Below the pieces are notes generated by a model, which saw only the letters and a program-made list of their open reading frames with translations, did not search any database and was not told the origin of the DNA. 64,000 bases of DNA from Methanococcoides sp. EBM-47 (GTDB taxonomy: Archaea; Halobacteriota; Methanosarcinia; Methanosarcinales; Methanosarcinaceae). The translations under genes and the position numbers were made by a program. This document shows positions 20,605 through 39,786 of the stretch, in pieces (position 1 is the first letter of the stretch; each line of letters starts with the position of its first letter). The stretch is from positions 186,001 to 250,000 of the forward strand of contig MPPA01000010.1 in NCBI GenBank assembly GCA_001896725.1, written 5' to 3'.

Positions 20605-20637
20605 ATGGCTGACATAAATCTTAATGTGGGGAAAAAA

Positions 20638-21366: not shown

Positions 21367-21367
21367 A

Positions 21368-22099: not shown

Positions 22100-22103
22100 T
22101 TTT

Positions 22104-22523: not shown

Positions 22524-22679
22524 TTAATGGATTTGAACTGGTTATGTATATTGCAACAAACATGATGTAAACATTGACATATTATACTACTCATGCACAG
22601 CTCTAATAAGCACATAAACATTTATTTCAGTAAATATATAACTATCTAAACATCACAGATATTATAATAAGGTGACCAT

Positions 22680-23715: not shown

Positions 23716-24489
23716 TCATACACATCTGCGCAATTCATTGAGCAGGCGGTTCATTTCTTTTTCCATAACATCAGATAACATACCATCACACTCCCCAAGC
23801 AAGGCCTCTAACCTGTTAATATCATTGTCATTGCAGGCCATTACTTTACCCATATGAAGACGGAATTTTAATGACTCATAAAGATCGATCAGCTCCGGAT
23901 ATGCTATCCTCGGATATTTGGTTGCTATCTCATGCCATAAAGCAACAGCTCTGGGGTATGCCAGCATCAGATGCCCTTCATATTTTTGTCTGGAGTTGCC
24001 AATGGGGCCCGTAACCTCTGTAAAACCAAGCTTTTTACTGAAAAAGCTTGCAGCTTCGGGGTTGTCTGGAATTGTGAGAACATTACCTTTAAGATAGTAT
24101 ACAGCCCTTGAGAACAAGACCCTGCCAATTCCACAGTTACGGAAAGAAGAATGAACTTCCATACTACGTAACAGGAATAAAGATGGCCTTACGACATTCA
24201 TCTTGCCCTTGATCTCTTTTTCGGTATGTTCCTCCAATTTCTCAAATCGTGCAAATCCTATGAGCTTATCATTCCCGATTATTGACGCAAACAAGAAATG
24301 ACCTGATTCAATGGATTTTTTGAGAAGGAACACATATGGCATCCCAAACTTCTGATGAAAATAAATGAAACCTTCCCTGTCAACAGTGCCTATATCGATG
24401 TTTAGAGTATCAACTGCTTTGGATGACATGAGAAGGACATAAGAGATATCTCCCGCCTGGTGTATTTTTTTCATTTCCTGCATTTGCAT
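23716..24489 (-). CDS. GNAT-family N-acetyltransferase
   Basis: 257 residues. The GNAT core lies between residues 65 and 170: a FARFEKL strand, then MEVHSSFRNCGIGRVLF with the acetyl-CoA-binding R-x-x-G-x-G turn at residues 117-122, and a later PEAASFFSKKLGFTEV segment. The N-terminal 60 residues and the C-terminal 80 residues are extra. It is the last gene of the long reverse-strand archaellin-associated run, 32 bases after the coiled-coil gene. The acetyl acceptor is unknown; two HDAC-family genes lie in the same run. Confidence 0.8.
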   Translation of the reverse strand: MQMQEMKKIHQAGDISYVLLMSSKAVDTLNIDIGTVDREGFIYFHQKFGMPYVFLLKKSIESGHFLFASIIGNDKLIGFARFEKLEEHTEKEIKGKMNVVRPSLFLLRSMEVHSSFRNCGIGRVLFSRAVYYLKGNVLTIPDNPEAASFFSKKLGFTEVTGPIGNSRQKYEGHLMLAYPRAVALWHEIATKYPRIAYPELIDLYESLKFRLHMGKVMACNDNDINRLEALLGECDGMLSDVMEKEMNRLLNELRRCV

Positions 24490-24521
24490 GATCTCACGAG
24501 ATAGGGATCATAGAGCCTTTG

Positions 24522-26198
24522 TCATTCTTTGTTCGCACTGTAGTACAGATACCTTCCTTTTCTGTACGAAGTGATCAAACCCGAAGATAAAGCCCCGTCT
24601 AAAATCTGTGTTAGCTCCTTTTCATCTATTTTGTTATCAGAGGATATCAGAGATCTGCGGAGTTGTTTCAATGTAGACGGACCAGCATCGTTCAGAGCAG
24701 TTACAACCACTCCTGAGAGCTCATGCAGGTTATCCAGCTCATCTAGGTCAATTAACATATCACTTTCAAGAGTGTCAGATTTGTCTTCATGGATAACAAC
24801 TTCCTCAATGTCATCCAGGTCGATGTACATCACATCTTCCTGCATTTCCGAGCGTAGCTTTTGCAATTGCTCCTGCAATGAAGCCACTTCTCTGGAAACG
24901 TTTTCAACACTATGGAAATCCGAGAATACAGAATTTACACGTGAATAGAGTTCCGCTATCATTAAGGATGTTTGTTCTCTCAGATCGTTCAAAGCTGTAG
25001 CGAGAGCTGTAATTTCAGGCTGTGATGGCACAGCCTGGGAGATCTCTGAGGAAATAGAGAGAATTTCCTGGGTCACTACCTTGTTATCTGGATCTGATCC
25101 GATCTGTTCGAGCTGTGAACGAATAGTTTCCAGATTGTTATTTAATTTTTTAAATAGACGCGTATGCAAATTCACAGCATCCGAAAGGCTAGAGATCTGG
25201 TCCTTCATATTGATAATATCTTCTGATCTGTTCTTGATCTCCTCAAGTTGCTGGTTCTGTAACTGGGCAACGAATCCCATGTTCTCAGAAACTGTGTTTA
25301 ATTCCTGTAAGTATTTGTTCACAAGACATTCCAGGTCCTTAAGACGATGATTATGCTCAGCTATTTTTTCAATTGAATATTCTCTGCTGCCTGTTTCTAC
25401 AAATGATCGGAAATCCCGGGATTCGTAGTTTGGCACATATTCTACCATCCTTTTAAATATCTCTATATAGGTTCCATGGATCTGTTTTGTCGAAACCAGC
25501 CGGACCTGAATAGCCTCTGAAAGCTCTTTTACAATAAAAGTTCCCTCTTCGAACCGGAAAAAATCCACACCTGCACTGAACTCACGGACAGCACTCCTGA
25601 TAGAATGAACAATGTCTTCTGCCTCACTTTCCCCATATATGTTTAACATTGCTCCGTAAAGGTCATTCAACGTTTTCGAATAAGTGATCTGGAGCACATC
25701 CGGAGGGATTTTAGCAGCGTTGAGGAGCTGACCACTGAGAACATCCTCTTCCCGCGCTACCCTGCTTAATTTTTTATATAATGAGTCAAATTCTTTTCTT
25801 AATTTGGACAGCTCTCTGTTCGAAGCCAAATAAGAAACCTCATCTTTCAACGCATTCAAAGAATCAGAGCTCTTTGAAAGGCCTTCATCTATCTTTATCT
25901 GTACTTCAGAGAACATATCTTCAAAGTAAGCAATTTTTTGTTGAATAAGTTGAATGGTTGCATCGCCATAAATGGCCTGGGGTTTATCTACAGAAATTTG
26001 TTCAATTACACTTTGAGGTAAATCGTCATCGATCTTTGATCCTGAAACATCTGTATCTTCCAAAGAAGAAAATAAAAGAGAGACATCTGTGATATCTGCC
26101 TGGATATCAGGCTTGTTTCCTGTGATGTCACCATCACATGACCCGATGCAATGTGAACAATCTTCCGGCTTGTTCTTCAGATCATTAGTTTTTACCAT
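24522..26198 (-). CDS. long coiled-coil protein with C-terminal winged helix
   Basis: 558 residues from the ATG at 26198, chosen because it follows the upstream stop; the open frame reaches 26351 inside the previous gene. The N-terminus has a small cysteine cluster (CGCMV precedes it, then DCSHCIGSC). Residues about 90-480 are mostly heptad-rich helices (for example ISSLSDAVNLHTRLFKKLNN). The last 70 residues form a winged-helix-like unit, VTALNDAGPSTLKQLRRSL to YRKGRYLYYS. Its architecture recalls scaffold proteins; a distant tie to archaellum cytoplasmic proteins FlaC/D/E is possible but not shown. Confidence 0.65.
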   Translation of the reverse strand: MVKTNDLKNKPEDCSHCIGSCDGDITGNKPDIQADITDVSLLFSSLEDTDVSGSKIDDDLPQSVIEQISVDKPQAIYGDATIQLIQQKIAYFEDMFSEVQIKIDEGLSKSSDSLNALKDEVSYLASNRELSKLRKEFDSLYKKLSRVAREEDVLSGQLLNAAKIPPDVLQITYSKTLNDLYGAMLNIYGESEAEDIVHSIRSAVREFSAGVDFFRFEEGTFIVKELSEAIQVRLVSTKQIHGTYIEIFKRMVEYVPNYESRDFRSFVETGSREYSIEKIAEHNHRLKDLECLVNKYLQELNTVSENMGFVAQLQNQQLEEIKNRSEDIINMKDQISSLSDAVNLHTRLFKKLNNNLETIRSQLEQIGSDPDNKVVTQEILSISSEISQAVPSQPEITALATALNDLREQTSLMIAELYSRVNSVFSDFHSVENVSREVASLQEQLQKLRSEMQEDVMYIDLDDIEEVVIHEDKSDTLESDMLIDLDELDNLHELSGVVVTALNDAGPSTLKQLRRSLISSDNKIDEKELTQILDGALSSGLITSYRKGRYLYYSANKE

Positions 26199-26214
26199 AC
26201 ATCCACATCCGTTT

Positions 26215-26985
26215 TTATACAAAAGATTCAAGCTTTCGTTTGATGTCAGGTATCCACTCTGACATGCAAATATCGGCAATGTAATCACCATGTAGTGGAC
26301 GTATCTGGTCATTGACCACCATTTCCAGAAGCAATGGCCACAATTTTTCATTCATCCATTTAGGGGAAGAAGCAATTTCATTAAAAGCCATTGCTAGAAC
26401 CTGATCAACCTCCCCGCGTCCCATAACATCTATTATCTTCTTTTTGATGTCACTAAGTATCTCCATATTCTTTTTGTATTCAGAAGATTGCGTATACATT
26501 TCATTGAATACGCATTTAGCAAGCTCCTTTAGTTCTCTGGAAACGTCTTCCGGGTATGCGGAGAGCTGAGCCTCGGTCATTGGCTTTTGTTCAAAAAGGT
26601 GCTGCATGACATCTCTTGTTATCTCTATTTTTCTCATGTTCTGAGAAAGATCTATCTTCTTAGTGAATAATGAGATCAGTAGTGCACCTCTTCCCACAGA
26701 TGAGAAAATAACAGTACCAAAATCATATTCGATCACTGATTGCTGCAAGCCCATTGAAAGTTGCTGACTTATATGCAATAAGTTGCTGGTAATGAGATTT
26801 GTCAGTTCGAATAACTTAGGACCAATACTATCCGGGATATACGAAGCATATATCTTTCCATCGATTCCAGCAAACAACAAAATATCCACATCACTTGTTT
26901 CGTAGGTCCTCTTCAATTGGGATACCAATGCGAACTTTAGCAGAGATACATCCTCAAGATCCTCTTTTGTTTTTTTCACTGCCAT
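26215..26985 (-). CDS. roadblock/LC7-like domain protein
   Basis: 256 residues from the ATG at 26985 (a GTG at 26994 is possible). Residues 25-110 fit a roadblock/longin fold: DILLFAGIDGKIYASYIPDS, a long helix, then VIEYDFGTVIFSSVGRGALLIS. The C-terminal half is helical. Roadblock proteins commonly regulate small GTPases or ATPases. The gene lies 17 bases after the KaiC-type ATPase gene, so it may be a regulator of that ATPase. I could not assign a specific family. Confidence 0.6.
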   Translation of the reverse strand: MAVKKTKEDLEDVSLLKFALVSQLKRTYETSDVDILLFAGIDGKIYASYIPDSIGPKLFELTNLITSNLLHISQQLSMGLQQSVIEYDFGTVIFSSVGRGALLISLFTKKIDLSQNMRKIEITRDVMQHLFEQKPMTEAQLSAYPEDVSRELKELAKCVFNEMYTQSSEYKKNMEILSDIKKKIIDVMGRGEVDQVLAMAFNEIASSPKWMNEKLWPLLLEMVVNDQIRPLHGDYIADICMSEWIPDIKRKLESFV

Positions 26986-27002
26986 TGTTACCACATCAGA
27001 AT

Positions 27003-28082
27003 TTATTTCATAAGCTCTTCAAGCTCTCTGAGCTCCTCGATATCGATAATACCTTCATTCGTCTTTTTGGAAGGAGCAGACATTTCTTCCGGGCCAACAA
27101 GCGTCTTTTCAACATCTGCAAGGAAAGCAGGCTGCTCTCCTGTGCTCTCAGCGATGTGCTGAGCTTCTTGTTTTCGTTTTTCAACGTCCTCTTTTCTAAT
27201 GGAACCAGTAAGTCCCTGAGATTCAAAGAATATCTGAAGGGTTTCTTTAGGAGAGAAGGAATATGTCCAGTTTTTCTTCACATACTCTATGCGACCAAGC
27301 AGACTTTCAGAGGCGCCGAGATCAGCTGCCGTTCTGATCGCTTTGTCGAACATATCATCATATTTATTTGCATCTTCAGCTGAAATAAGAGGAGTGGTCC
27401 TTACAACAACACCTATTCCACGGACAAATATATACGGATAGACCTCTTCACCATGCCTTGTAGCGCGCATTTTAATGATCTCAAGAGCCCGGTTAAAAGC
27501 GCCACCAATAGGCCTGTAGGAAAGATGGATAGCACCATCGGACATATAGACTGGAATAAGCACATCCTCACCTACTGCTTCTCCAGGAGCTGCATGTTCT
27601 TCTGTCGTGATCAACACCGGACCAAGTTGTTTCAAGGTATAGAACAGTTTAGTGATAATATCCCTCTGTTCCTGCTTATCCTGAACGGCCCAGATAAGCG
27701 GGGTAAGGGGATCAATGACCACACGTGTCTTCACAGCATAATCCTTATTAGCTTCCACAAGTGCTGGTAACTGTTCATCCACCAGCTTAACAAAGTCCTT
27801 TCCTTTAGAGTGGAAAAAGAAAAGTTCTTTGTTATAGTACTTGTCTAAATTGAAACCAAGCATGCGGGCTTCTCTGAGTATCTGTTCTGCTGGCTCTTCC
27901 ATGCTGACATAAAGAGCGTTTTCCCCATGTTCAAGACCGTAAGCGATATACTGCATTGCAAAAGTAGATTTCCCTGTACCACTTGAGCCTACAATGAGCA
28001 ATGTGCTCTTATCCCGCACACCACCTTCTATTACTCTGTCCAGACCTGCTATACCCGTGGGGATCCTGGTCTCTTCGTTCAT
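27003..28082 (-). CDS. KaiC-type RecA-fold ATPase
   Basis: 359 residues. It opens with RIPTGIAGLDRVIEGGV and has the Walker A GSSGTGKST (residues 32-40), the catalytic glutamate pair in SMEEP (residues 60-64) and a VVIDPLTPLIW Walker B strand. This is a complete single KaiC domain. About 110 extra residues follow, helical and acidic, ending in DIEELRELEELMK. It is not FlaH: it has both catalytic glutamates and the extra tail. It overlaps the Sm-like gene by 4 bases (ATGA), which indicates co-translation. Confidence 0.85.
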   Translation of the reverse strand: MNEETRIPTGIAGLDRVIEGGVRDKSTLLIVGSSGTGKSTFAMQYIAYGLEHGENALYVSMEEPAEQILREARMLGFNLDKYYNKELFFFHSKGKDFVKLVDEQLPALVEANKDYAVKTRVVIDPLTPLIWAVQDKQEQRDIITKLFYTLKQLGPVLITTEEHAAPGEAVGEDVLIPVYMSDGAIHLSYRPIGGAFNRALEIIKMRATRHGEEVYPYIFVRGIGVVVRTTPLISAEDANKYDDMFDKAIRTAADLGASESLLGRIEYVKKNWTYSFSPKETLQIFFESQGLTGSIRKEDVEKRKQEAQHIAESTGEQPAFLADVEKTLVGPEEMSAPSKKTNEGIIDIEELRELEELMK

Positions 28083-28420
28083 AAAAGACCCTCCAGTCTA
28101 GGATCATTTGTCATATCTGAACTACTATTTATCTGGCCGTTCTCTACAGAGAGTATAAGTGATTCGTTCTCCTCGAAAGGGTATCCTAATTCAATGTACA
28201 TGACCTCAACCGAGTAACCACTGATCAACATAAGATCAGTTACTTTGACCCAACCGGATTCTACCTTACGTACAACATCCTTGAGAAAAATATCATTAGA
28301 TTTTGCATCAACCATTAGACATTCTCCTCTATAATGGGAACTGTCAGTTATGACACGTACCATCTCTCCGATAAAGCGGGAGATTAGATCATATTTATCG
28401 TTTTGTGGACCACAAACCAT
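28079..28420 (-). CDS. small protein with a likely Sm-like (LSm) fold
   Basis: 113 residues from the ATG at 28420, which has GAGG seven bases upstream. Residues 15-75 follow the Sm pattern by eye: FIGEMVRVITDSSHYRGECL, then MVDAKSNDIFLKDV and a third stretch ending LMLISGYSVEVMYIEL. This mirrors the Sm1 sequence (G-V-V hydrophobic, G, D-N-L) and the Sm2 strand (I-x-G-x-V). The tail after residue 80 is acidic. Sm-like proteins bind RNA as rings; here the gene lies between V4R and KaiC genes, which is unusual. The assignment is from pattern only. Confidence 0.5.
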   Translation of the reverse strand: MVCGPQNDKYDLISRFIGEMVRVITDSSHYRGECLMVDAKSNDIFLKDVVRKVESGWVKVTDLMLISGYSVEVMYIELGYPFEENESLILSVENGQINSSSDMTNDPRLEGLL

Positions 28421-28429
28421 GTTCAAGCC

Positions 28430-29359
28430 TCAGTTTTGTTTTTTCATCTTTGCTATGAGCTCAGCAAAGCTTCCTGCAGTCTTTGCTTCATCTTTGATCT
28501 TCGTTGCCTGTTCCTGGATGGAAGGAGTAGAGGGGACAGGTGCTGGTGGCGAAACAGATGATAATGGGGGTGCAGAAGGAGCTGGAGCCGTAGCTGTAAC
28601 AGGAGACGGCATGGACTGCACTTTTAGAGCCATTTCCCCAAAAGCGGCACCAAAAGCATTATGCTTGGAAGTGATGGATTTGAGCTCCTCTGCCGTTTTC
28701 CATGGGGGATCGAATATTTTTTCTTTTACTGGCATGCTACCTGCAAATTGCATATAAGCTTCGCCTACATCGGAAAGTTTTCCCTGATCAAGAAGTTTAT
28801 AGATAGTAAGGATCTCCGCCCTACTGACAAGTTCAGGATGTTCCATAGCCGGGGGTCTTTTCCCAGAGAGGATAGATCTGTCATCGCCATCAAGGAGGAT
28901 CTGATAAGCAGAAATAGGCTGCAGTGATACCTTGAACTTGCAGACTGCTCCACTGTCCTTTATGCATTCTGTTTCCTCGACCGTACATTCTAGCTCTAGT
29001 CCCTCTTTGAAGAAACGGTGTAAAGCATCCGTGGTAGCTACACATACTTTCTGGTTATGGAGAGCAGGATAGATGTTGCAAACAGGACAACTTGGGACTG
29101 CAAACACATAATGCATTGGTGCATATCCTATGAGCTGCATATCTCCCAGACCCACTTCCTTGAACAAGCGCATCATAAAACCATACAAAGGAGTGGACCT
29201 GATCGATTCAATGGTATGTGCCCGCAGAAAGATCCGAGTGTCTTTCCACGGTACCCTGGAATTTGGGAACCTGGTGCTGATCGATTCCTGTATCTTTAGC
29301 ATGGCACCAAATGCACCAAGTGACTGAGCAAAGCTGCCACCTGGAGGCATATCGCTCAT
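28430..29359 (-). CDS. V4R-domain protein with proline/alanine-rich tail
   Basis: 309 residues. Residues 25-165 look like a V4R (4-vinyl reductase type) sensor domain: PLYGFMMRLFKEVG, CPVCNIYP, VCVATTDALHRFFKEGLEL and CIKDSGAVCKFKV, with four cysteines at the usual C-terminal positions. Residues about 245-285 are a flexible Ala/Pro/Ser linker, followed by a short helix ending FAELIAKMKKQN that could dock to a partner. V4R domains bind small hydrophobic ligands or metals in signalling proteins. It is 39 bases after the CheF-like gene. Confidence 0.65.
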   Translation of the reverse strand: MSDMPPGGSFAQSLGAFGAMLKIQESISTRFPNSRVPWKDTRIFLRAHTIESIRSTPLYGFMMRLFKEVGLGDMQLIGYAPMHYVFAVPSCPVCNIYPALHNQKVCVATTDALHRFFKEGLELECTVEETECIKDSGAVCKFKVSLQPISAYQILLDGDDRSILSGKRPPAMEHPELVSRAEILTIYKLLDQGKLSDVGEAYMQFAGSMPVKEKIFDPPWKTAEELKSITSKHNAFGAAFGEMALKVQSMPSPVTATAPAPSAPPLSSVSPPAPVPSTPSIQEQATKIKDEAKTAGSFAELIAKMKKQN

Positions 29360-29398
29360 ATCAGAAGCCCCCTGCTAAAAGTATCTTAGAGATAACCA

Positions 29399-29986
29399 TT
29401 ACATCAGCTCCTTGATCTTCGTCAGACCCTCCTGTGTCAGTCTTCCCATCGTATCACAGAACCCTTGGTCCCTGATGTTCTTAAAACTGCCAGCAAGAGT
29501 TTCATTATCAGCTCCTATAAGGAAGGAAAGTTTCGCCATATCATTGATCCCTGTATAGAGCATATAGAGCAATTTCTTGTCAATGTCAGAAAGAGACTGG
29601 GACTTTGGTGGAGTCCCGCACATTGGCTGAAGATAAGCTTTCAATGTGTTAATTACTGCCTCATTGCCTCCTAATAGTGCTACTGATGATGCATATGAAT
29701 CAGTACTTACACTTGAGGGCTGCAGATAGTCAATGATCAATACATGGGTTGTACCTATGCCACGCTGTGCTTTCAGGCGAATGGTATTTGGAACCTCTCT
29801 TCCCACCATAGTGATGTTCTTAAGTGGAATAGTGGACCAGCCTTTACCTTCAGAGAACCAGAGGTTAAGGTTAGTGAGATAAAGTATTCCCTTCTCCCAG
29901 TTGTCAGAATAAAGGGAGGTCCCCATAATGACAGCCTTGAAGATGTAATTTAGATCAACTTTTGCAATACCTTGCTCCTGTGTCAT
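29399..29986 (-). CDS. CheF-like taxis protein
   Basis: 195 residues from the ATG at 29986, which has AGGGAAAAG just upstream; the open frame reaches 30061. Residues 10-75 fit the PH-like domain of CheF (DUF439): DNWEKGILYLTNLNLWFSE then TIPLKNITMVG. A C-terminal winged helix follows (KKLLYMLYTGINDMAKLSFL to LTQEGLTKIKEL). CheF links CheY to the archaellum motor in haloarchaea. Here no CheA, CheY or receptor gene is in the window, so the role may differ. It may start a second transcription unit, since an AT-rich promoter-like tract precedes it at 30001-30050. Confidence 0.65.
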   Translation of the reverse strand: MTQEQGIAKVDLNYIFKAVIMGTSLYSDNWEKGILYLTNLNLWFSEGKGWSTIPLKNITMVGREVPNTIRLKAQRGIGTTHVLIIDYLQPSSVSTDSYASSVALLGGNEAVINTLKAYLQPMCGTPPKSQSLSDIDKKLLYMLYTGINDMAKLSFLIGADNETLAGSFKNIRDQGFCDTMGRLTQEGLTKIKELM

Positions 29987-30125
29987 CTTTTCCCTACAAA
30001 TATTTAATATTAAATTATAATTATAAAATATATAGTACTGAACTAATAAAACAGTTTCCATTAGTTTGCCAGTAGTAAGGCAAATTAGAATTTAAAGAAG
30101 AAATAAAAACAGAGAATTGAAGATG

Positions 30126-31043
30126 TTACTTATTTTTTAAGAAATATCTCTCATTTCCACATGCAGCACATATAAAAAGAAAGCCTGGAGAACTACCTGA
30201 GACAGCATACTTATGGGTCATGTATTCGCCACAGCTACACTGGCTCATCATCTTATGCTCCTTTAAAAATTCTCTGTTAGTAGGAGCAGCCGTATCTGAA
30301 GCACTCTGAACAATGGGAACACAGCTGCAAGAGAACGGTCGTGCACAATGAACATCTGCCTCTACCCGAGACACAGGTTCGAATGGGTCAGGCCCCACAA
30401 GATCTCTGACCATTGTACCTTCCTTTACGCTCGCCACTTCAGGGTCCTGCTCAGAAGACAGATTAAAGGCAGGCCTGAATACATCTTTTACATAAAGGTC
30501 CTTCTGGATTTTTAATAGTCCTTCATTGTTGATCTTCAGTTCAGCAGGAACGCTCTTTAACTCATGAACTTCTGGAAGGAAAAGATAGCCAGGATAGTTA
30601 CTAAGGTCTACAGGACAATCCTTGGCAGGCTCCTGGAAACCCAGAGACAGAAAAAAAGCCTTTGCTATAGCGTTTACCGGTTTAGTCAGTATATGCCCAG
30701 GACAAGCCTTGAAGCTTAGCAAGAACAATACTTTGCCAATACCTCTGCGGGAGATAGAAGGGGACACTTCGATCCCTCGCAGTACGTGGACAGAGCTCCC
30801 ATCCTTACTATTCTGGTTCCATCTTTCGGTCATTACCCAACCTACGATAGTGACATCATCTATTCCAACTATAAGGGTCACAGATTGTCTTTTGAGCCAA
30901 CTGTTAAAGTTATCCATATAGTTGCTCATACCCAAATGTTTATTGAAATAATTGAAACTGCCTATCTTAAGCTTATCAAGCTCATATGGGTATCTCAGTT
31001 TGGAAAACTTCAATCCACCATCATAGCAAGCAAGATCTATCAT
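30126..31043 (-). CDS. GNAT acetyltransferase with C-terminal zinc ribbon
   Basis: 305 residues from the ATG at 31043. GNAT core: a TLIVGIDDVTIVGWVMTE strand pair, RGIEVSPSISRRGIGKVLF with the R-x-x-G-x-G/A acetyl-CoA turn (residues about 96-104) and NAIAKAFFLSLGFQ. The C-terminal 35 residues hold a zinc ribbon (CSCGEYMTHK and CAACGNERY). A Cys-rich stretch (CARPFSCSC) precedes it. The ribbon may bring the enzyme to nucleic acid or a protein partner. It lies 22 bases after an HDAC-family gene. Confidence 0.75.
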   Translation of the reverse strand: MIDLACYDGGLKFSKLRYPYELDKLKIGSFNYFNKHLGMSNYMDNFNSWLKRQSVTLIVGIDDVTIVGWVMTERWNQNSKDGSSVHVLRGIEVSPSISRRGIGKVLFLLSFKACPGHILTKPVNAIAKAFFLSLGFQEPAKDCPVDLSNYPGYLFLPEVHELKSVPAELKINNEGLLKIQKDLYVKDVFRPAFNLSSEQDPEVASVKEGTMVRDLVGPDPFEPVSRVEADVHCARPFSCSCVPIVQSASDTAAPTNREFLKEHKMMSQCSCGEYMTHKYAVSGSSPGFLFICAACGNERYFLKNK

Positions 31044-31065
31044 AAAAAGCACCAAATCAAATATA

Positions 31066-32130
31066 TTAAATTTCCCAGTAAGATGACATCAATGTCTTAA
31101 GTTCATTTAGTTTGCTCTCAAATATACGTCTGCAAGAACTTTGGCGGGAAGCCAGTAGATGCATCTGATCAACCTCATCTTTAGTATATCTGTTACCTGA
31201 CAATGCCTGCAATACCATATCTGCCAGCAGGCCAATATCATCATGATAGCCACCCTCCAGCAATACAATAGTGCGCCATTTGCTAGAGATGCTAGAAACT
31301 ATGCCATAATACCCATCCATCGTCAGGTTCAGCTTAGAAAGTCCTTCTTTGTAATAAGAATCAAAACCACACTCAAGGATAACTATATCAGGACAAAACT
31401 GCTCAATTACCTTAAGGCCGATCTCTTCAAAAAAAATAAAATATTCAGAATTCCCTGCCTCTGGTGGCATTTCCATGTTCAATGTATACCCTACAGCTGG
31501 CATAAAGCCTATTTCCCGAATGAAACCTTTGAAGGGATAAAAGTGAGACGGGTCCTGGTGTACAGAAATGCAAAGGACGGATGGATCTGCATTGAATATA
31601 TCCTGAGTACCGTCTGAAGCATGGGCATCTATATTCACAATAGCGATCTTTGAATAGGACCGGACCTGCTGTAGATATCTTGCAAGGACAGCAGCATTGT
31701 TGAAGACACAGAAGCCGCTGTAGTGGTCTGCATACGCATGATGGCCCGGGGGCCTGATCAGGGCAAAAGCATGATCATGTTCTCCTGTTGCAACAGCTTT
31801 GCCCGCTTCAAGTACAGATCCCACCGCCTGCAACAAGACCTCAAGAGAACCCTCACATAAATAAGTATCATTACCAAGCCATCCACCCCCTTTCAGTGAA
31901 CATAGCTGCACGAAAGAAAAATAATCCATTGTATGCACACGCAGAACATCCTGAACAGAAGCACTGACAGGATTTAGAACTTTGCAGTTATTGTTTTCAA
32001 GTACTTTGTTATCTCTGAAATGCTGCATGATCCTTTGCAATCTTACAGGACTTTCCGGGCTTGGAAAGCCTTTCAACATATAATCATGCAGCTCGTGATT
32101 GGTATTGAATATGACACCTATGCTGCGCAT
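31066..32130 (-). CDS. histone deacetylase family protein
   Basis: 354 residues with a complete HDAC-superfamily active site: RPPGHHA (His130-His131), the zinc ligands Asp168 and His170 in NIDAHASDG, the third zinc ligand Asp257 in ECGFDSYYKEG, and the catalytic-type tyrosine Tyr295 in LEGGYHDD. The arrangement matches the acetoin-utilization/acetylpolyamine and class II deacetylases. It removes acyl groups from lysine or polyamine substrates. AGAGGTAGA precedes the ATG. It follows the longer HDAC paralogue with an 11-base gap. Confidence 0.85.
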   Translation of the reverse strand: MRSIGVIFNTNHELHDYMLKGFPSPESPVRLQRIMQHFRDNKVLENNNCKVLNPVSASVQDVLRVHTMDYFSFVQLCSLKGGGWLGNDTYLCEGSLEVLLQAVGSVLEAGKAVATGEHDHAFALIRPPGHHAYADHYSGFCVFNNAAVLARYLQQVRSYSKIAIVNIDAHASDGTQDIFNADPSVLCISVHQDPSHFYPFKGFIREIGFMPAVGYTLNMEMPPEAGNSEYFIFFEEIGLKVIEQFCPDIVILECGFDSYYKEGLSKLNLTMDGYYGIVSSISSKWRTIVLLEGGYHDDIGLLADMVLQALSGNRYTKDEVDQMHLLASRQSSCRRIFESKLNELKTLMSSYWEI

Positions 32131-32141
32131 TCTACCTCTTA

Positions 32142-34016
32142 TTATTCCTGAATTCCTAACATTTCCTTAACATATGAAACCTTTTTTTCTGTAGCTTTCA
32201 TGATCGATTTCTGCTGATTTCGTTCATATTCCGTGGTTTTAAGAGTATCAGCTATGGGATCAGGCAGTCCAAGCAAAGAATTGATGACCACATGAGCAAG
32301 ATGTCCATTGAACTTGTGGTAACCTCCTTCCATTATTAGTACAAGGTTCCCATTCATGATGGACATGATCTTCTTTGTCATCATATGATAGCCTGCAGAA
32401 GTAAGATTCAGCTTTATGTGCTGTTCTTTATAATAAGCGTCAAACCCGCAGCTGCATATTACAAAATCCGGTGAGAAACTGTGCAAGAGAGGGATCACTA
32501 GTTCATCAAAAACAAAAGCATAGTCTTCATCTCCTGCCCCCACAGGCATTTCCACATTGACCGTGTAACCTACACCTGGTCCTTCTCCAGTCTGAGAACT
32601 GAAACCTCTTCTGGGATAGAAGCCATGCGGGTCACGATGCAGGGACAATACCAGAACTGTGGGGTCATCATAGAATATCTCCATAGTGCCATCGCCGGCA
32701 TGAGCATCCCAATCAATAATCATTACTTTTGAAATGCCTTTTTTTCTCTGCAAGTAACGAGCTAAAACAGCTGCATTATTAAATATACAAAAGCCTCTGT
32801 ACTTGTCCGCATTTGCGTGGTGACCTGGAGGTCTGGTCATCACCATGGCTGCAGAATATCTTCCTGATAACACAAGTTCTCCAGCCTGTATAGAAGAGCC
32901 CACGGCAAGTCCTGCAACTTCAAATGTATTAGACGTCATATAGGTACTGTCACCCAGAAAACCTCCACCTGAAAGGGAGTATGATCTGACGAACTTGATA
33001 TACTCAGCAGAATGGACCAATAAGAGATCCTGATCTGAAGCAGGATATTTATCTGTGATAAGGTCACATCTTTTACTGAAAACACCACTACGCTGTAGAT
33101 ATTCCATGGCCCCTGTAAGACGCTCAGGACGTTCCATGTCCTGTACATTGGTATTTACAGGAAAATGTGCAATGTGAGCTTCAGAATATAGTACAGCTAC
33201 TTTTTCAGGCAGGTCTTTTTGAGCCACTGTCATGTCTATCTTTTCAGCATGTACAAGCTCATTTTTTTTCATCCCACATTCAATTTGATCCAGTTTATCC
33301 ATAATACTGGCAATATCCTCGGTCACTGGAGGATTGTTACCTATGTTCTTGTTAATGCCTTTTGTGATCTTGCCTGAGATCTGCACTTGCTGTTCTCTAT
33401 CTGAAACTGTTCCCCCCTTTTCTTTTTGGACAAGAACGGTACTTTCTTGTTCCTTATGTGAAATAGACTTAATTACGTTTTCTTTCTTTTTCAAGATCGC
33501 ATTTGATTTTGGTTCTGTCTCTGATAATCCTGCTTGCTCATGCACAGTCGTGCTTGCATCTGTAACTGAACAGTATGGAGAAAGATGTGCCTTTTCATTA
33601 ACAAGCGACTTCACCAGAGGCCTGGGACAGTCCTGCTCTAGTTCACAAGAATCGTATAACACTTCCTTAAAACTTGAGGAAGCCAACTTGTTCAGTTTAT
33701 TGTACAACTCGTGTTCAAGATCCTTTCCTGCAGATCTAGAAGATGACTGTTTTTGCTGTTGATCGGTCATGATATTGTTTACAGATGAACCGGCATCGCT
33801 GCTGAGCTCTGCGTAAATCACATTATCCTCTGTGTTTTCTTTTTCTGATGGGGCGATGGCCTCTTCCATCGCAACTCTTATGGAGATGTCATCTTGACCT
33901 CTGACCATACCTTCCAGACTATCGTTAAAGCGTAGTGCTATCAACTTATTAAGTTTTAACATAGTTTCTTTTATATTATCCTCTTTTTCAACACCACCAT
34001 TTTCTTCTTTGAACAT
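32142..34016 (-). CDS. histone deacetylase family protein with a 270-residue N-terminal extension
   Basis: 624 residues from the ATG at 34016 (GGAGG five bases upstream). The C-terminal 350 residues are an HDAC domain closely related to its downstream neighbour: RPPGHHANADKY, IIDWDAHAGDGT, SCGFDAYYKEQH and MEGGYHKFN keep all the zinc ligands and the tyrosine. The N-terminal 270 residues are polar and low in hydrophobics (runs such as QQQKQSSSRS), with no signal peptide or known domain, and are probably largely disordered. The extension may recruit partners or carry acetylated lysines. Confidence 0.8.
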   Translation of the reverse strand: MFKEENGGVEKEDNIKETMLKLNKLIALRFNDSLEGMVRGQDDISIRVAMEEAIAPSEKENTEDNVIYAELSSDAGSSVNNIMTDQQQKQSSSRSAGKDLEHELYNKLNKLASSSFKEVLYDSCELEQDCPRPLVKSLVNEKAHLSPYCSVTDASTTVHEQAGLSETEPKSNAILKKKENVIKSISHKEQESTVLVQKEKGGTVSDREQQVQISGKITKGINKNIGNNPPVTEDIASIMDKLDQIECGMKKNELVHAEKIDMTVAQKDLPEKVAVLYSEAHIAHFPVNTNVQDMERPERLTGAMEYLQRSGVFSKRCDLITDKYPASDQDLLLVHSAEYIKFVRSYSLSGGGFLGDSTYMTSNTFEVAGLAVGSSIQAGELVLSGRYSAAMVMTRPPGHHANADKYRGFCIFNNAAVLARYLQRKKGISKVMIIDWDAHAGDGTMEIFYDDPTVLVLSLHRDPHGFYPRRGFSSQTGEGPGVGYTVNVEMPVGAGDEDYAFVFDELVIPLLHSFSPDFVICSCGFDAYYKEQHIKLNLTSAGYHMMTKKIMSIMNGNLVLIMEGGYHKFNGHLAHVVINSLLGLPDPIADTLKTTEYERNQQKSIMKATEKKVSYVKEMLGIQE

Positions 34017-34037
34017 AATGCCTCCATGCAACAGCGT

Positions 34038-34985
34038 TCATTGGACAGGTATCCATATCGTATCCAAGGTTCCGGTATATTTTGTACCCAGATACTCAAA
34101 CACAACAGTAGGCTCTTCCACTCCAAGCCAGCCTTGCATCCTGGGCACAAATGTCCAACTCTGTTTCACTGTCTGACCAGCAGGTATGGGGTCAAAGAAA
34201 AGAGCAGTATCTTTGATCTCCACAGTATTAGGGAATCTTGCTTTTATAGCAAATTTTTCATATGGTTGCTGAGAAAAGTTCTTTATCCATACATCAATAA
34301 CTGTCTTTCCGCCAGCCACAACTTTTTGTGAAGGGACGAACATGATGAACTGAGCAAGAGATTCCTTTGGCATAGGAATACCATTACTGGTATCCACGGT
34401 TCTGCTATTATTCTTGTGTTTTTGTTTTTCTCGCTGATTGAGATATATACCAGAACCGAAGAGCATTACAGAAAATATAGTTATAGGCAAAGCGTTCTCT
34501 GTAATAGGATCAATGGGAGTTCTCTGAACCTCTACGGTCACAAGGTCATCCTCTGAAAGTTCAAGGGGACCAGAGAAAGTGACCCTGATTATGATCCATC
34601 CAAGTTCGGTATACTGTAATTTGAAGTATATAGGTAGAATAGCTCTTTCTATCTCGTTACCATCATCATTAAGTTTTGCCACTGTACATTCTGCCGTAGC
34701 AACTGCAACATTCTCTGTGTGCTCTTCTGAAATGATCAACACTTCTTTAAGCCCACCTGGAGAGAACTTCTTGTTCTTGAACGTCATCCCTATGCTGGCA
34801 GGAACAAGGAAATCTTTCCCTTCATACATACCAAAAGCCACATTATAGTCCTCTGCATTCACAGCTTCCAGGAACTTAATGACAGTAGTGTTCACTGCAT
34901 CAGAATGTTCCTGACCCGAACATCCACTTGCGTAGATAGAAAAACTGAAAATGAACAATATGAGGAGTAAGTGTTGATATCTCAT
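34038..34985 (-). CDS. lipoprotein with NTF2-like and CARDB-like parts
   Basis: 315 residues. The N-terminus is a lipoprotein signal: a hydrophobic stretch to residue 20 and then the lipobox-like YASGC, so a lipid on Cys22 is expected. Residues 30-150 resemble a DUF4878/NTF2-like domain (VIKFLEAVNAEDYNVAFGMY). A second membrane span lies near residues 165-182 (ITIFSVMLFGSGIYLN). The C-terminal 110 residues form a beta-rich, Ig/CARDB-like domain (KVVAGGKTVIDVWIKN). It is 33 bases after the EF-hand protein gene and probably acts at the cell surface. Confidence 0.65.
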   Translation of the reverse strand: MRYQHLLLILFIFSFSIYASGCSGQEHSDAVNTTVIKFLEAVNAEDYNVAFGMYEGKDFLVPASIGMTFKNKKFSPGGLKEVLIISEEHTENVAVATAECTVAKLNDDGNEIERAILPIYFKLQYTELGWIIIRVTFSGPLELSEDDLVTVEVQRTPIDPITENALPITIFSVMLFGSGIYLNQREKQKHKNNSRTVDTSNGIPMPKESLAQFIMFVPSQKVVAGGKTVIDVWIKNFSQQPYEKFAIKARFPNTVEIKDTALFFDPIPAGQTVKQSWTFVPRMQGWLGVEEPTVVFEYLGTKYTGTLDTIWIPVQ

Positions 34986-35018
34986 TTAACTCATATTATA
35001 GTATTAAATATATAATAT

Positions 35019-35762
35019 TTAATACTTTCTTCTTGTAAAAATAAAAAACATGATCAGTAGTAATTCAATGCCTAACAGAAGAGGCAAAACATATCCATGT
35101 TCATAAAAGTTGGGGGTTCGGAAATCCACAATAGTGGCATATTCAAATGTTGATCTATTACCTGCCATAAAGTTGCGTACTCCACTTCTTCCCTCCAGTT
35201 CTACCTGACCATCCTCCACTATTGTGACATTGTCCAACCCATCATGAGAGACAAGTATTGTACCTTTTGGCAGGCTTATGCGCATCCTCTCTATAAGAGG
35301 GTGGCCAATGACCCACAAAGAATGATCACCTGCTCCAAGAGCAGGAACAATACCATAGTTAATGGTCGTATTAACATAAAGAGGATCTTGACCGACCTTT
35401 CCTGTAGCATTATATAGATCAAAAGAGATAGAGTCCATGTACAAAGTTACATTGCCATTATCCACCATTATATATTCCATGAACTGTGAACTTCTCGATG
35501 CAAGATAGGACCTTTTAAAAGAAGTGAGCTCAGGCTCCGTTACCAGAGAATCATTATCAGTATCAAGAGATTGTCTAAATTCAAGTGCATCGCTTAAATT
35601 ATATGTCTCTAATATGGTCAATGTGAGAACATCTTTTTCAAGATGTACATCATTCTCATAAACAGCTTCTGCTATTGCCTGAGAAACTAAAAGAAGTAGT
35701 ACCATAAAGAAAATCGGTCCTTTTGGGATATTAACACCTTCTGATAAAAGGAGAGATATCAC
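35019..35762 (-). CDS. surface membrane protein with an EF-hand-type loop
   Basis: 247 residues from a GTG at 35762, one base after the archaellin stop; an ATG at 35705 is an alternative. A signal peptide ends near AIAEAV (about residue 34). A near-perfect EF-hand loop DTDNDSLVTEPE lies at about residues 70-81, with acids at loop positions 1, 3, 5 and 12. The C-terminus has one membrane span (VLPLLLGIELLLIMFFIF) and a basic tail, so most of the chain faces outward. Calcium binding is inferred. I do not recognise the overall family. Confidence 0.65.
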   Translation of the reverse strand: MISLLLSEGVNIPKGPIFFMVLLLLVSQAIAEAVYENDVHLEKDVLTLTILETYNLSDALEFRQSLDTDNDSLVTEPELTSFKRSYLASRSSQFMEYIMVDNGNVTLYMDSISFDLYNATGKVGQDPLYVNTTINYGIVPALGAGDHSLWVIGHPLIERMRISLPKGTILVSHDGLDNVTIVEDGQVELEGRSGVRNFMAGNRSTFEYATIVDFRTPNFYEHGYVLPLLLGIELLLIMFFIFTRRKY

Positions 35763-35763
35763 T

Positions 35764-36546
35764 TTACGGATATAATTGTATTGTTTCCTTGCTACCGTAG
35801 GAAGAGGGAGTTACAAAATCCACACTTGTTATTGTTCCAGCTTCCGGTGTAAAGACCAGACTTACAGTTGTTCTAGGTCCGATGTCAAGGGTTGAATCTT
35901 TCTGAGAGCCGTTAGTGGTTATATGACCAATGGTCGTATATCCAAGATCACCATCTGAGACCGTTGACACATAGATGGTCACGAGATCTCCGGTGTTCAT
36001 AATAGGAGAGGATTGAGAAAAAGATAGGTCCTCATCACGGATCTTGGACACTGTGAAATAGTATGCTGCATTGTCACCCGGATAGGTCTGAGTGGACGTC
36101 AGCAATTTTTCAAGATTAGCATCTGCACTTGCACTGCCTGAAAAATCGCTCATTGAGGTTCCATAAGATTTCTTATTGTTCCCATATATAAGATCATTAT
36201 TGTTGGTCCCATCTGAGATGGAAATAACCAATTGGTTAAGATCTACAGGAGAACTACCTACATTAAGTCCAACTTTCATCTTAAGGAGAGAGATGTTCTC
36301 AGCCATGAACGTTGAACTATTCTTAGCCCGTATACCTTCAATGCTTTTTACCACCAGATTGGATGAAACTTCCTGAGTTGCCTGTTTACCGGTAGATTGT
36401 GCCTTTTGTTGTAACACACCGGATGTTTGTATGAGCACAGAGGCAGCAACTGAGGCTATAAGCACCATAGCTATGAAAATAATAAGAGTACCAATGCCTA
36501 TCTGAGCACTGGTATCATCTCTTAAAGAGGATCTTTCTATGGTCAT
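35764..36546 (-). CDS. archaellin (flagellin B-type), copy 1
   Basis: 260 residues. A class III signal peptide (MTIERSSLRDDTS) is followed by [22 protein letters not shown], the N-terminal helix shared by all archaellins; prepilin peptidase-type cleavage just before AQ is expected. The rest is beta-rich, with N-linked glycosylation sequons such as NSS and NIS, and ends in [18 protein letters not shown]. It is the most diverged of the four copies and is paired with copy 3. It follows copy 2 with 29 bases between them and runs into the EF-hand protein gene without a terminator. Confidence 0.93.
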   Translation of the reverse strand: MTIERSSLRDDTSAQIGIGTLIIFIAMVLIASVAASVLIQTSGVLQQKAQSTGKQATQEVSSNLVVKSIEGIRAKNSSTFMAENISLLKMKVGLNVGSSPVDLNQLVISISDGTNNNDLIYGNNKKSYGTSMSDFSGSASADANLEKLLTSTQTYPGDNAAYYFTVSKIRDEDLSFSQSSPIMNTGDLVTIYVSTVSDGDLGYTTIGHITTNGSQKDSTLDIGPRTTVSLVFTPEAGTITSVDFVTPSSYGSKETIQLYP

Positions 36547-36575
36547 TGTATTGCCTCTTTAGGCTCAATGTCTGA

Positions 36576-37388
36576 TCATGGATACAGTTGTACGGTTTCT
36601 TTTACACCATAGGAAGAAGGTGTCACAAAATCAGCATTTGTCACTACACCTGACTCCGGAGTAAGGATTATGTTAACAACAGTCCTTGGCACCAGATTAA
36701 GGCCAGCTGTTTTAAGACCTGCTGAAGTGTCGGTGGTACCTACAGATGTATATTTAGCTGAGGCAGCACTTGGTGAAGTTGTGGCAATATATACATTGAT
36801 AAGGTCACCAGTGTTCATGACAGGGTTCGACTGTGAGAAAGAAGCATCTTCATCACGGATCTTGTCTACTGTGAAATAGTGATCAGAATTGTTGAAAGTA
36901 GAGGATGCAGCGGTTGTACCTGTAAGAAGCTTTTGAAGATTGGCCGCTGAATCGGTTGAGCTAAAACTACCCATTGCCCCATTTGAGGAACCGACAGATG
37001 CATATGATTTTTGGTTACCTGCATAAACAAGGTTGTTTGCAGTAGTACCATCGGTGATGGAGATGACCACCTGATTAACGTCCACGGATTGGCTTCCTAC
37101 GTTCAGACCAACTTTCAGCCTTAGAAGATCGATAGTGGATGAGAGAACCACAGAACTGTTCTTTGCACGCACACCCTCGATATTTTTAACGATCAGGTTG
37201 GAAGATACTTCCTGGGTTGCCTGTTTACCAGTAGACTGTGCCTTCTGCTGCAGTGTACCAGATGTCTGAATGAGCACGGCGGCAGCCACGGCGGCAACCA
37301 GCACCATTGCAATGAAGATGATCAGTGTACCAATACCTACCTGTGCATTAGTATCTTTCTTCATGGAAAATATTTTATTTGCTTTCAT
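36576..37388 (-). CDS. archaellin, copy 2
   Basis: 270 residues from the ATG at 37388, which follows AGAGGA by six bases; the frame is open to a TTG at 37394. It opens [14 protein letters not shown] and [23 protein letters not shown]. It is most like copy 4, with matching segments along its whole length (for example [20 protein letters not shown]). A promoter-like TTTTATATAAAAC lies near 37421-37433 on the reverse strand. It heads the long run of reverse-strand genes down to 23716. Confidence 0.93.
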
Positions 37389-37549: not shown

Positions 37550-38317
37550 ATGACAGCAGGATTGATACTCAATGCAACAATATGTTTTGCAATAACTGCA
37601 TCTTCATTTGCCTTTGCATGGGTACTTGCAAGCAGTGAAGACAAGCATAATGAGAAAAGTAAGCCTGCCCTGTGGGCTCTGGTGGTCCTCTGGTCACTTG
37701 TAGCCTTAACATATCTGCCAACAACTATCCGAATGATAGCATCAGTTACAAATCACCCATCCCTTGACTTAATGATGTATAACCTTGCAGCAATACCTTT
37801 TTCAATGGTCACTGTTCCACTTGTGTTCTTTATATTGTATATAATAACAGGCAATCAGAAAATAAGTGGATATTTATCTTTCCTGTTCATACTTTTTGGG
37901 GCAGCATACCTGGCGTTCCTTTACTCTAACGGTGTAATTGGACCCATTATGACCGAATACTCCTCAATGTTCAAAATCAACAGTGATACTGCCATTAATA
38001 TATATCTAGTTGGACTTTTTGTGATCCCCACGGCAATGATATTGGGATTAATGATGCTAATATTCCTTCAGCGTATGCCACGCCATCTCAGATACAGGAC
38101 TACACTTCCACTAGTAGCTATATCATTCGTGTTTGATTTTATGCTAACTGACATGATCACTGATATGGATGTTATGCAGGTGGCAGCAAGGACCTTTATC
38201 CTTATTGGTACTGTTCTGGCGTTCCTTGCCTACTTCCCTCCCTCTACATTGAAAAAAACACTTGGAATTGAAACATCTTTGAATGAGAGCTATGAGGAGG
38301 AAGAAAATGGCCTTTGA
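37550..38317 (+). CDS. seven-span membrane protein
   Basis: 255 residues with seven predicted membrane spans, near residues 3-27, 42-63, 75-100, 104-124, 147-171, 182-203 and 213-228. The N-terminus is outside or in the first span, without a cleaved signal, and the last 25 residues are acidic and cytoplasmic (ESYEEEENGL). The two-cysteine-poor, 7-TM layout recalls archaeal 7TM sensors, but I do not recognise a family. A TATA-like GATATATATAATG near 37500-37512 and GAGG at 37541-37544 precede the ATG. It is divergent from archaellin copy 2 and overlaps the winged-helix gene at its end. Confidence 0.7.
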   Translation: MTAGLILNATICFAITASSFAFAWVLASSEDKHNEKSKPALWALVVLWSLVALTYLPTTIRMIASVTNHPSLDLMMYNLAAIPFSMVTVPLVFFILYIITGNQKISGYLSFLFILFGAAYLAFLYSNGVIGPIMTEYSSMFKINSDTAINIYLVGLFVIPTAMILGLMMLIFLQRMPRHLRYRTTLPLVAISFVFDFMLTDMITDMDVMQVAARTFILIGTVLAFLAYFPPSTLKKTLGIETSLNESYEEEENGL

Positions 38318-38669
38318 AATAGATGTAGAGATGGAACAGAAAGTTGCTGATTTCTACCAATCACTTGGCATCAATCAAGGCCCAGGCGACCTCCAATATA
38401 GAATTATCCTTCTTGTACTGAACAAGAATGAAGGAAAGATTACTGAGTTTGCGGATATTAGAGAATATACCGACAATTTTGCAGACAAAGGCAGCATTGG
38501 AAGCAAAATGAAAACTGTTTTCCAGCTTGAAGGATTAGTTGAAAAGGTAAAAAGAGGAGGCTATATGATCACTGATAAAGGGATCATAGCTGCCAATTTC
38601 CTTAAAGATACCACTGATTATTATAAGAAAACAAAACGCATGGGTGACATGATCGATAGGATGCCCTAA
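38307..38669 (+). CDS. small winged-helix protein
   Basis: 120 residues from the ATG at 38307, preceded by GAGGAGGAAG; the frame opens earlier at 38283 inside the 7-TM gene. It begins MAFEIDVEMEQKVADFYQSLG. A winged helix is suggested by IGSKMKTVFQLEGLVEKVKRGGYMITDKG at residues 70-98. The gene overlaps the 7-TM gene by 11 bases, so the two are translated together. It may be the regulator or the cytoplasmic output of that membrane protein. No family is recognised. Confidence 0.65.
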   Translation: MAFEIDVEMEQKVADFYQSLGINQGPGDLQYRIILLVLNKNEGKITEFADIREYTDNFADKGSIGSKMKTVFQLEGLVEKVKRGGYMITDKGIIAANFLKDTTDYYKKTKRMGDMIDRMP

Positions 38670-38940: not shown

Positions 38941-38967
38941 AAAAAAGGAAGGTGAGAGAACTCACCT
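38941..38967 (-). terminator. hairpin terminator of archaellin copy 3
   Basis: AGGTGAG at 38950-38956 and CTCACCT at 38961-38967 form a perfect 7-bp stem with a four-base loop. On the reverse strand it is followed by TTCCTTTTTT. The stem overlaps the stop codon of archaellin copy 3. Confidence 0.7.
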
Positions 38968-39752: not shown

Positions 39753-39786
39753 AAGATCACCTCTCTTCTATGCAACCCATTAAGTT

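What the first reader, a model, noticed from the sequence alone, without database searches (positions are those of the whole stretch)
23716..37388. Fourteen-gene archaellin run joining KaiC-type ATPase, CheF-like, V4R, Sm-like and acetylation enzymes
Two archaellins open a reverse-strand run in which gaps are mostly under 40 bases and one start overlaps the previous stop. Downstream come an EF-hand surface protein, a lipoprotein, two HDAC-family proteins, a GNAT with a zinc ribbon, a CheF-like protein, V4R, Sm-like, KaiC-type, roadblock-like and coiled-coil proteins, and a second GNAT. Canonical archaellum operons continue with FlaC/D/E, F, G, H, I and J, and none of those is seen. An AT-rich tract at 30001-30050 may split the run into two transcripts. 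I infer a signalling system tied to archaellum or surface structure, with acetylation as a likely switch.
Basis: partly seen in the sequence, partly recalled or inferred. Interest (0 to 1): 0.87.

Follow-up and report, generated by a model that had tools for sequence, protein, structure and literature searches.

The report
KaiC signalling cassette beside archaellin genes
Next to the genes for the swimming filament of a methane-making archaeon sits a conserved set of signalling genes that is lost whenever the chemotaxis genes are lost, and it probably carries signals to the swimming motor in place of the usual adaptor protein CheF.

Summary
In detail: a same-strand run of 14 genes, archaellins to GNAT, with no arlC-J in it. 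The motor operon is on another contig. The gene order recurs in 29-35 of 38 loci from Methanomethylovorans, Methanolobus, Methanohalobium, Methanosalsum and relatives. The run is two things joined. (a) Archaellins, EF-hand-like protein and lipoprotein belong to the archaellum. (b) HDAC1-HDAC2-GNAT1 | CheF-like-V4R-Sm-KaiC-Roadblock-coiled coil-GNAT2 form a separate cassette. The cassette follows chemotaxis: 37 archaellate genomes have both, 12 have neither. One Methanolobus lost the whole 11-kb block cleanly, its che genes and all HDACs, yet kept its archaellum genes. Che operons of these genomes show no cheF. The CheF-like protein is a CheF without its first PH domain. A reduced version of the cassette, with HDAC and GNAT, occurs in Thermoplasmata, where no CheW was found. 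Two genes that follow the coiled coil there close the che operon here. Best reading: a KaiC/V4R/Roadblock hub that replaced CheF between chemotaxis and the archaellum. The CheY link and the acetylation switch are inferred.

The parts
36576..37388 (-). archaellin AB1
   Evidence: PF01917 E 4e-31; kept in the genome that lost the cassette
35764..36546 (-). archaellin AB2
   Evidence: PF01917 E 1e-30
35019..35762 (-). surface protein with an EF-hand-like loop and C-terminal TM; archaellum-linked, not part of the cassette
   Evidence: sequence; loop pattern in 21 of 26 relatives; retained in G129
34038..34985 (-). lipoprotein; archaellum-linked, not part of the cassette
   Evidence: lipobox ASGC; retained next to archaellins in cassette-less genomes
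32142..34016 (-). HDAC1: HDAC6-class deacetylase domain with a poorly conserved N-terminal extension of about 270 aa
   Evidence: PF00850 E 2e-86; Zn and catalytic residues H399 H400 D437 H439 D526 Y566 invariant; PDB best HDAC6
31066..32130 (-). HDAC2: second deacetylase; not found in the Methanohalobium and Methanosalsum loci, fragmentary in two other Methanomethylovorans loci
   Evidence: PF00850 E 7e-77
30126..31055 (-). GNAT1 acetyltransferase with C-terminal zinc ribbon
   Evidence: PF00583; ribbon CxC...CxxC in aligned Methanosarcinaceae members, missing in Thermoplasmata
29987..30125 (-). intergenic promoter region of the second transcript; TATA box 30029-30034
   Evidence: conserved TATATA in five Methanomethylovorans loci
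29399..29986 (-). CheF-like adaptor: PH2-like domain plus CheF-type C-terminal domain, no PH1
28430..29359 (-). V4R sensor protein with C-terminal SFAELxxKxxK tail
   Evidence: PF02830 E 2e-5; three Cys (C106, C132, C140) invariant across Methanosarcinaceae and Thermoplasmata
28079..28426 (-). small protein of 115 aa, possibly SH3/Sm-like (not confirmed)
   Evidence: E 0.06; conserved position
27003..28082 (-). KaiC-family ATPase with Walker A, catalytic EE, Walker B; acidic C-terminal tail ending in a conserved short motif
   Evidence: PF06745 E 4e-46; PDB KaiC E 1e-44
26215..26985 (-). Roadblock/LC7 (MglB-like) domain plus helical C-terminal domain
24522..26198 (-). coiled-coil scaffold with a conserved central domain and a C-terminal winged-helix-like end
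23716..24489 (-). GNAT2 acetyltransferase
   Evidence: PF00583 E 6e-8
37550..38317 (+). seven-TM protein, divergent from the archaellins; archaellum-linked
   Evidence: retained in cassette-less genomes
38283..38669 (+). small winged-helix-like protein paired with the 7TM gene
   Evidence: retained in cassette-less genomes
38967..40599 (-). two further archaellins (38967-39752, 39787-40599)
   Evidence: PF01917

Best explanation
The run is an archaellin/surface-protein unit followed by an independent signalling cassette. In the cassette a KaiC-type ATPase, an MglB-like Roadblock protein, a cysteine-bearing V4R sensor and a coiled-coil scaffold form a cytosolic hub. A CheF-derived adaptor (PH domain plus CheF C-terminal domain) connects the hub to the ArlCE switch ring of the archaellum motor and takes over the job of CheF, which is not found in these genomes. 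The V4R protein would sense a small ligand or redox state, KaiC/Roadblock would integrate it with CheY-P from the separate che operon, and the HDAC and GNAT pair would set the acetylation state of hub or motor proteins. Shown: conserved cassette, CheF homology, no cheF in the che operons read, co-loss with che, physical linkage to che genes in Methanosalsum, and cassette genes inside the che operon. Inferred: the protein contacts, the direction of signalling, the ligand, and acetylation as a switch.
For: Conserved order in 29-35 of 38 loci. V4R is found in 39 Methanosarcinaceae genomes with high similarity. CheF-like matches canonical CheF along PH2 and the C-terminal domain; its profile's best PDB hit is the CheF C-terminal region, though weak (E 0.024). 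That C-terminal domain binds CheY-P, and the PH domains are thought to dock on ArlCDE (PMC9126983). Che operons of cassette genomes (L114, L118, L128-L133) hold che genes but no gene matching CheF. No cassette genome has a PF04283 hit over cut-off except four Methanolobus genomes whose hit is a 402-413-aa paralogue. Genomes with this archaellum type: cassette and CheW 37, cassette only 1 (73% complete), neither 12; the five with CheW but no cassette have a CheF homologue beside CheW (Fisher p 1e-10, not corrected for phylogeny). G129 nests inside Methanolobus (100% support with G123) and lost the block, CheA and all HDACs, but kept archaellins, EF, LIPO and the motor genes. In Methanosalsum natronophilum CheY-CheB-CheR-CheC follow V4R-KaiC-Roadblock-CC on the same strand; in G147 a che operon lies beside the cassette. 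Two genes that follow CC in Thermoplasmata end the che operons here (51% and 47% identity).
Against: The Thermoplasmata cassettes occur in genomes with no detectable CheW, so chemotaxis is not the ancestral or only input. CheF-like is about five residues shorter than CheF where CheF forms its dimer strand, so CheY-P binding may be lost. In most genera che and cassette are on different contigs or far apart. The co-loss count is phylogenetically clustered. The CheF profile misses some true CheF proteins (three g7 genomes), so a diverged CheF could be overlooked. No expression, interaction or acetylation data exist. The CheF-like model is of moderate confidence (mean pLDDT 72) and its fold search gave only generic PH and HTH hits, not CheF.
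Confidence: 0.55

Rival explanations
1. The cassette is a self-standing KaiC/V4R redox or energy sensor that acts on the archaellum (assembly, speed or on/off) in parallel with chemotaxis. CheF-like only docks it to the motor and does not bind CheY. It is lost with che because both become useless once directed swimming is given up.
For: Cassette without CheW in six Thermoplasmata genomes. V4R resembles the methanogen regulator MsvR and keeps its three cysteines. CheF-like is shortened at the CheF dimer strand.
Against: It does not by itself explain why canonical CheF was not found in che-positive cassette genomes, why che genes follow the cassette in Methanosalsum, or why two cassette genes close the che operon.
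Confidence: 0.3
2. The cassette positions or scaffolds the archaellum and chemoreceptor array at the cell pole (polar-cap-like role), with Roadblock acting like MglB in polarity and the neighbouring MinD/KaiC2 genes helping.
For: Roadblock domain matches MglB. MinD, TrmB-like and a second KaiC lie next door in most loci. A coiled-coil scaffold is present. MinD4 positions motility machinery in Haloferax (literature known to me; related papers found).
Against: No MglA-type GTPase was recognised in the locus; G129 keeps its archaellum genes without any of it. The MinD/KaiC2 group is separable: absent in some cassette loci, present without the cassette in G184.
Confidence: 0.08
3. The cassette regulates archaellin transcription (winged-helix ends of CheF-like and the coiled-coil protein), with GNAT and HDAC acting on chromatin proteins.
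For: Winged-helix-like ends; position beside archaellins; HDACs.
Against: The fold matched in CheF-like is CheF's protein-binding domain, not a DNA reader. Archaellins remain next to their own divergent 7TM/winged-helix pair in genomes without the cassette. Thermoplasmata cassettes show no archaellin within about 5 kb.
Confidence: 0.05

Closest known systems
CheF, the archaeal CheY-P adaptor (PF04283; structures 7ovp, 7od9)
   Same: CheF-like aligns along CheF's second PH domain and C-terminal CheY-binding domain
   Different: No first PH domain; shorter dimer strand; below Pfam's cut-off; encoded with archaellins, V4R, KaiC and Roadblock instead of beside cheY
Archaeal KaiC-family signalling hubs (proposal of Makarova et al. 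2017, cited in PMC5847659; full text not held) and KaiC/Roadblock genes near type IV pilus and archaellum loci (PMC4858521)
   Same: KaiC ATPase and Roadblock gene near an archaellin locus
   Different: Fixed cassette with V4R, CheF-like, HDAC and GNAT; found in Methanosarcinaceae and Thermoplasmata; tied to presence of chemotaxis in Methanosarcinaceae. I did not find it described in the papers searched.
ArlH, the KaiC-like archaellum protein
   Same: KaiC family fold
   Different: A true ArlH is on contig C10. The cassette KaiC scores 57.5 bits against a cut-off of 215, and keeps the catalytic EE pair where ArlH of this genome reads TQ
MglB/Roadblock polarity and GAP proteins
   Same: Roadblock domain of similar structure
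   Different: Extra helical C-terminal domain; no MglA-type GTPase recognised
HDAC6-class deacetylases and bacterial HDAC-like amidohydrolases
   Same: All zinc and catalytic residues
   Different: Inside a signalling cassette; poorly conserved N-terminal extension; substrate unknown

Membership tests
CheF (PF04283) | Homology along PH2 and C-terminal domain | tested here: met
   hhalign prob. 97%, E 1.1e-10 over 177 columns
CheF (PF04283) | Two N-terminal PH domains | tested here: not met
   Only PH2 is present; residues 1-75 or so of CheF have no counterpart
CheF (PF04283) | Pfam curated cut-off | tested here: not met
   16.8 bits against 25
CheF (PF04283) | C-terminal domain able to dimerise and bind CheY-P | tested here: inconclusive
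   Helices predicted, dimer strand shortened by about five residues; binding not testable here
Canonical archaellum operon | arlC/D/E, F, G, H, I, J following the archaellins | tested here: not met
   They are on contig C10, with no full-length archaellin ORF beside them
KaiC-family ATPase | Walker A, catalytic carboxylates, Walker B | tested here: met
   GSSGTGKST, SMEEP, VIDP conserved
ArlH | Curated score cut-off of NF052589 | tested here: not met
   57.5 against 215 bits
Roadblock/LC7 | Fold | tested here: met
   Foldseek E 2e-6 to archaeal Roadblock3, 1e-5 to MglB
V4R | Three conserved cysteines | tested here: met
   C106, C132, C140 invariant across the two archaeal groups; Pfam hit below cut-off
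HDAC superfamily (zinc-dependent) | His-His dyad, D-H-D zinc ligands, catalytic Tyr | tested here: met
Sm/LSm | Sm fold | tested here: inconclusive

The most novel reading that the evidence does not exclude
An archaeal signalling system shared by Methanosarcinaceae and Thermoplasmata, in which a KaiC ATPase, a V4R sensor and a Roadblock protein act through reversible protein acetylation (HDAC6-class deacetylase plus GNAT), and which in Methanosarcinaceae has displaced CheF as the route from chemotaxis to the archaellar motor.
Probability: 0.35. Interest if true: 0.87.

Novelty: new variant of a known kind. Interest (0 to 1): 0.74.

Why it matters
CheF is described as the adaptor that links archaeal chemotaxis to the archaellum. 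Here is a clade with che genes, an archaellum and no full-length CheF found, plus a cassette that holds a trimmed CheF homologue and is lost whenever che is lost. That makes the replacement of CheF directly testable in cultured Methanolobus. The cassette also gives KaiC-type archaeal hubs a concrete set of candidate partners (V4R, Roadblock, scaffold, acetylation enzymes) conserved between two distant archaeal groups, and offers a possible biological context for archaeal HDACs.

Tried and rejected
One single 14-gene archaellum operon: rejected, since G129 keeps archaellins, EF and LIPO without the rest. KaiC protein as ArlH: rejected by score and catalytic residues. Strictly Methanosarcinaceae-specific module: first suggested by a profile search of one phylum, rejected after Thermoplasmata relatives appeared. 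Chemotaxis-only module: rejected as a general statement because six Thermoplasmata genomes show no CheW. A shared motif IDxExLxEL in the KaiC tail and coiled coil: seen in the window, but in the coiled coil it is not conserved among relatives, so not used. Fetching longer Thermoplasmata contigs failed because contig numbers are not known. The 2017 paper on KaiC hubs is not held, so I could not check whether it lists part of this neighbourhood. Fold search with the CheF-like model gave only generic PH and HTH hits.
Full report
Observation. The window lies in a 2.18-Mb genome of a Methanomethylovorans relative (the same-genus contig in G141 is titled Methanomethylovorans sp.). Small corrections: starts of CheF-like (29986), coiled coil (about 26198), Roadblock (26985) and HDAC1 (34016). 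Two more archaellins lie upstream (38967-40599). The archaellum motor operon arlCE-F-G-H-I-J is on contig C10, where PF01917 matches only ArlF/ArlG-type genes.

Conservation. V4R was found at E 1e-97 or better in 39 of 186 genomes of the order, all in the same family (four more hits at E about 5e-4 are chance-level or generic V4R). Neighbourhoods of up to 20 kb were fetched. The order AB1-AB2-EF-LIPO-HDAC1-HDAC2-GNAT1-CheFL-V4R-Sm-KaiC-Roadblock-CC-GNAT2 holds pair by pair in 26/27 to 36/36 loci; nine genes LIPO to CC are in order in 29 of 38, and V4R-KaiC-Roadblock-CC in 35 of 38. Genera identified by contig title and length: Methanomethylovorans, Methanolobus, Methanohalobium, Methanosalsum. 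In most loci GNAT1 and CheF-like are parted by 82-268 bp (838-1902 bp in three; 39 bp in one, where the called start is too early), while most genes of the second half nearly touch. A TATA box 48 bases before the CheF-like start is conserved. I therefore read two transcripts.

Two units in one run. In G129, a Methanolobus at 99% completeness that nests beside G123 with 100% support, the locus reads winged helix, 7TM <> AB1, AB2, EF, LIPO and then at once the outer flanking genes. The DNA after LIPO matches the DNA that follows the cassette in G123 (80.5% over 318 bp), so the block from HDAC1 to the gene after GNAT2 (about 11 kb) was removed cleanly. G129 has no CheA, no proper CheW and no HDAC gene at all, but keeps its motor genes. 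Other genera with the same archaellum type but no che (g7, g10, g14; probably Methanococcoides and Methanohalophilus for the first two, by inference) have archaellins, 7TM and winged helix, with LIPO in g7 and g14, and no cassette. Counted over genomes with this ArlH type (at least 245 bits): both 37, neither 12, cassette only 1 (a 73% complete genome), che only 5; those five have a CheF homologue beside CheW, where the case read in full shows a second archaellum locus. Fisher p is 1e-10 without the five and 2e-7 with them, but the genomes are not independent. On the tree of archaellum-linked proteins the cassette-less groups fall among cassette-bearing ones, so several separate losses are likely.

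Link to chemotaxis. The che operons of cassette genomes (L114, L118, L128-L133) carry cheB, A, C, R and mostly cheY and cheD, but none matching cheF. In Methanosalsum natronophilum (L088) V4R-KaiC-Roadblock-CC are followed on the same strand by CheY-CheB-CheR-CheC, and its CheF-like and Sm genes lie between ArlCE copies and an archaellin on another contig that also carries CheW and CheA. In G147 a receptor gene, CheW, CheY, CheB and CheA follow beyond the cassette.

CheF-like protein. Profile comparison with canonical CheF gives probability 97% and E 1.1e-10. The match covers CheF's second PH domain and C-terminal domain; the first PH domain is missing. In the solved CheF the C-terminal domain binds CheY-P, and the PH domains are proposed to dock on ArlCDE (PMC9126983). 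The predicted structure shows a beta-rich PH-like part and a helical bundle with a C-terminal helix. The strand that dimerises CheF is shortened, so CheY-P binding is plausible but not shown.

Other parts. The KaiC protein keeps Walker A, catalytic EE and Walker B. Roadblock matches archaeal Roadblock and MglB by structure. V4R keeps three cysteines and a C-terminal SFAEL-type tail in both archaeal groups. Both HDACs keep all catalytic residues. GNAT1 carries a zinc ribbon in the aligned Methanosarcinaceae members only.

Beyond the family. A scan of one genome per species found Roadblock relatives in Thermoplasmata and one unclassified euryarchaeal MAG (32-39% identity). The two most complete loci (L176, L177) read HDAC - two small genes - CheF-like (weak) - V4R - KaiC (52%) - Roadblock - CC - D209 - D207, with GNAT1 following in L176; L175 has V4R to GNAT1 (KaiC 60%). 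The CheF-like assignment there is tentative (hhalign prob. 44%, E 2e-4). CheW was not found in any of the six genomes (completeness unknown). D209 and D207 are 51% and 47% identical to the two genes that close the che operon in Methanosarcinaceae; they were found at that place in the che loci that reach far enough. So the cassette in Methanosarcinaceae seems split over the archaellin locus and the che operon.

Mechanism. Shown: the cassette, its CheF homology, its joint loss with che, and its links to che genes. Inferred: CheF-like docks the hub on ArlCE and passes CheY-P or hub signals to the motor; V4R senses a ligand or redox state (a V4R domain also occurs in the methanogen regulator MsvR, hit; its redox role is from my own knowledge); acetylation of hub or motor proteins tunes it. 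I put the adaptor reading at 0.55, a parallel sensor at 0.3, polar scaffold at 0.08, transcriptional control at 0.05.

Known or new. KaiC and Roadblock genes near archaeal type IV pilus and archaellum loci were noted before (PMC4858521), and KaiC hubs were proposed in 2017 (cited in PMC5847659; paper not held). I found no description of this cassette, of a CheF-free chemotactic clade, or of HDAC/GNAT in such a hub in the papers searched; absence from these searches is not proof.

Noticed in passing
L128:5637-6879; L114:9321-10567; L118:14893-16138; L174-L178: Two related genes of about 208 aa (D209, D207) with no Pfam match close the che operon in Methanosarcinaceae and follow the coiled-coil gene in Thermoplasmata cassettes.
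   Followed up: partly
L134:4596-6516; L135:2958-4875; L136:4567-7876; L137:4433-6342: Proteins of about 400 aa related to the CheF-like protein sit next to a different KaiC-family gene in other loci, suggesting that CheF-like/KaiC pairing is a wider theme.
   Followed up: no
L130:12319-14439, L131:5369-7489, L132:12276-14396, L133:10295-12427: A protein of about 706 aa whose start resembles an actin/Hsp70-type ATPase (by eye) is inserted between CheC and CheR in che operons of Methanolobus and genus g3.
   Followed up: no
window 20605-23381: DUF835-like, MinD, TrmB-like and a second KaiC gene form a neighbouring group that can be present without the cassette (L141) or absent with it (L071, L072).
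   Followed up: partly
L010:722-1600: A lone 292-aa archaellin family member on contig C18 carries an insert that looks by eye like a cupredoxin-type domain; similar long singletons occur in other genera.
   Followed up: no
L009:13298-14401: A KaiC-like/DUF835-like protein fused to a receiver domain lies near the arl motor operon; KaiC-receiver fusions were reported for six Methanosarcinaceae genera (PMC5847659).
   Followed up: no
L062:16911-17492 and relatives: A conserved protein of about 195 aa follows GNAT2 or CC in many loci but is missing in the window genome.
   Followed up: partly
L141:16302-16742: G184 keeps a CheW-like gene of 146 aa near its archaellins although no CheA was found, perhaps a relic of lost chemotaxis.
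   Followed up: no
L054:10718-11184; L056:9144-9275: HDAC2 is fragmentary in two Methanomethylovorans genomes, so the second deacetylase seems dispensable.
   Followed up: no
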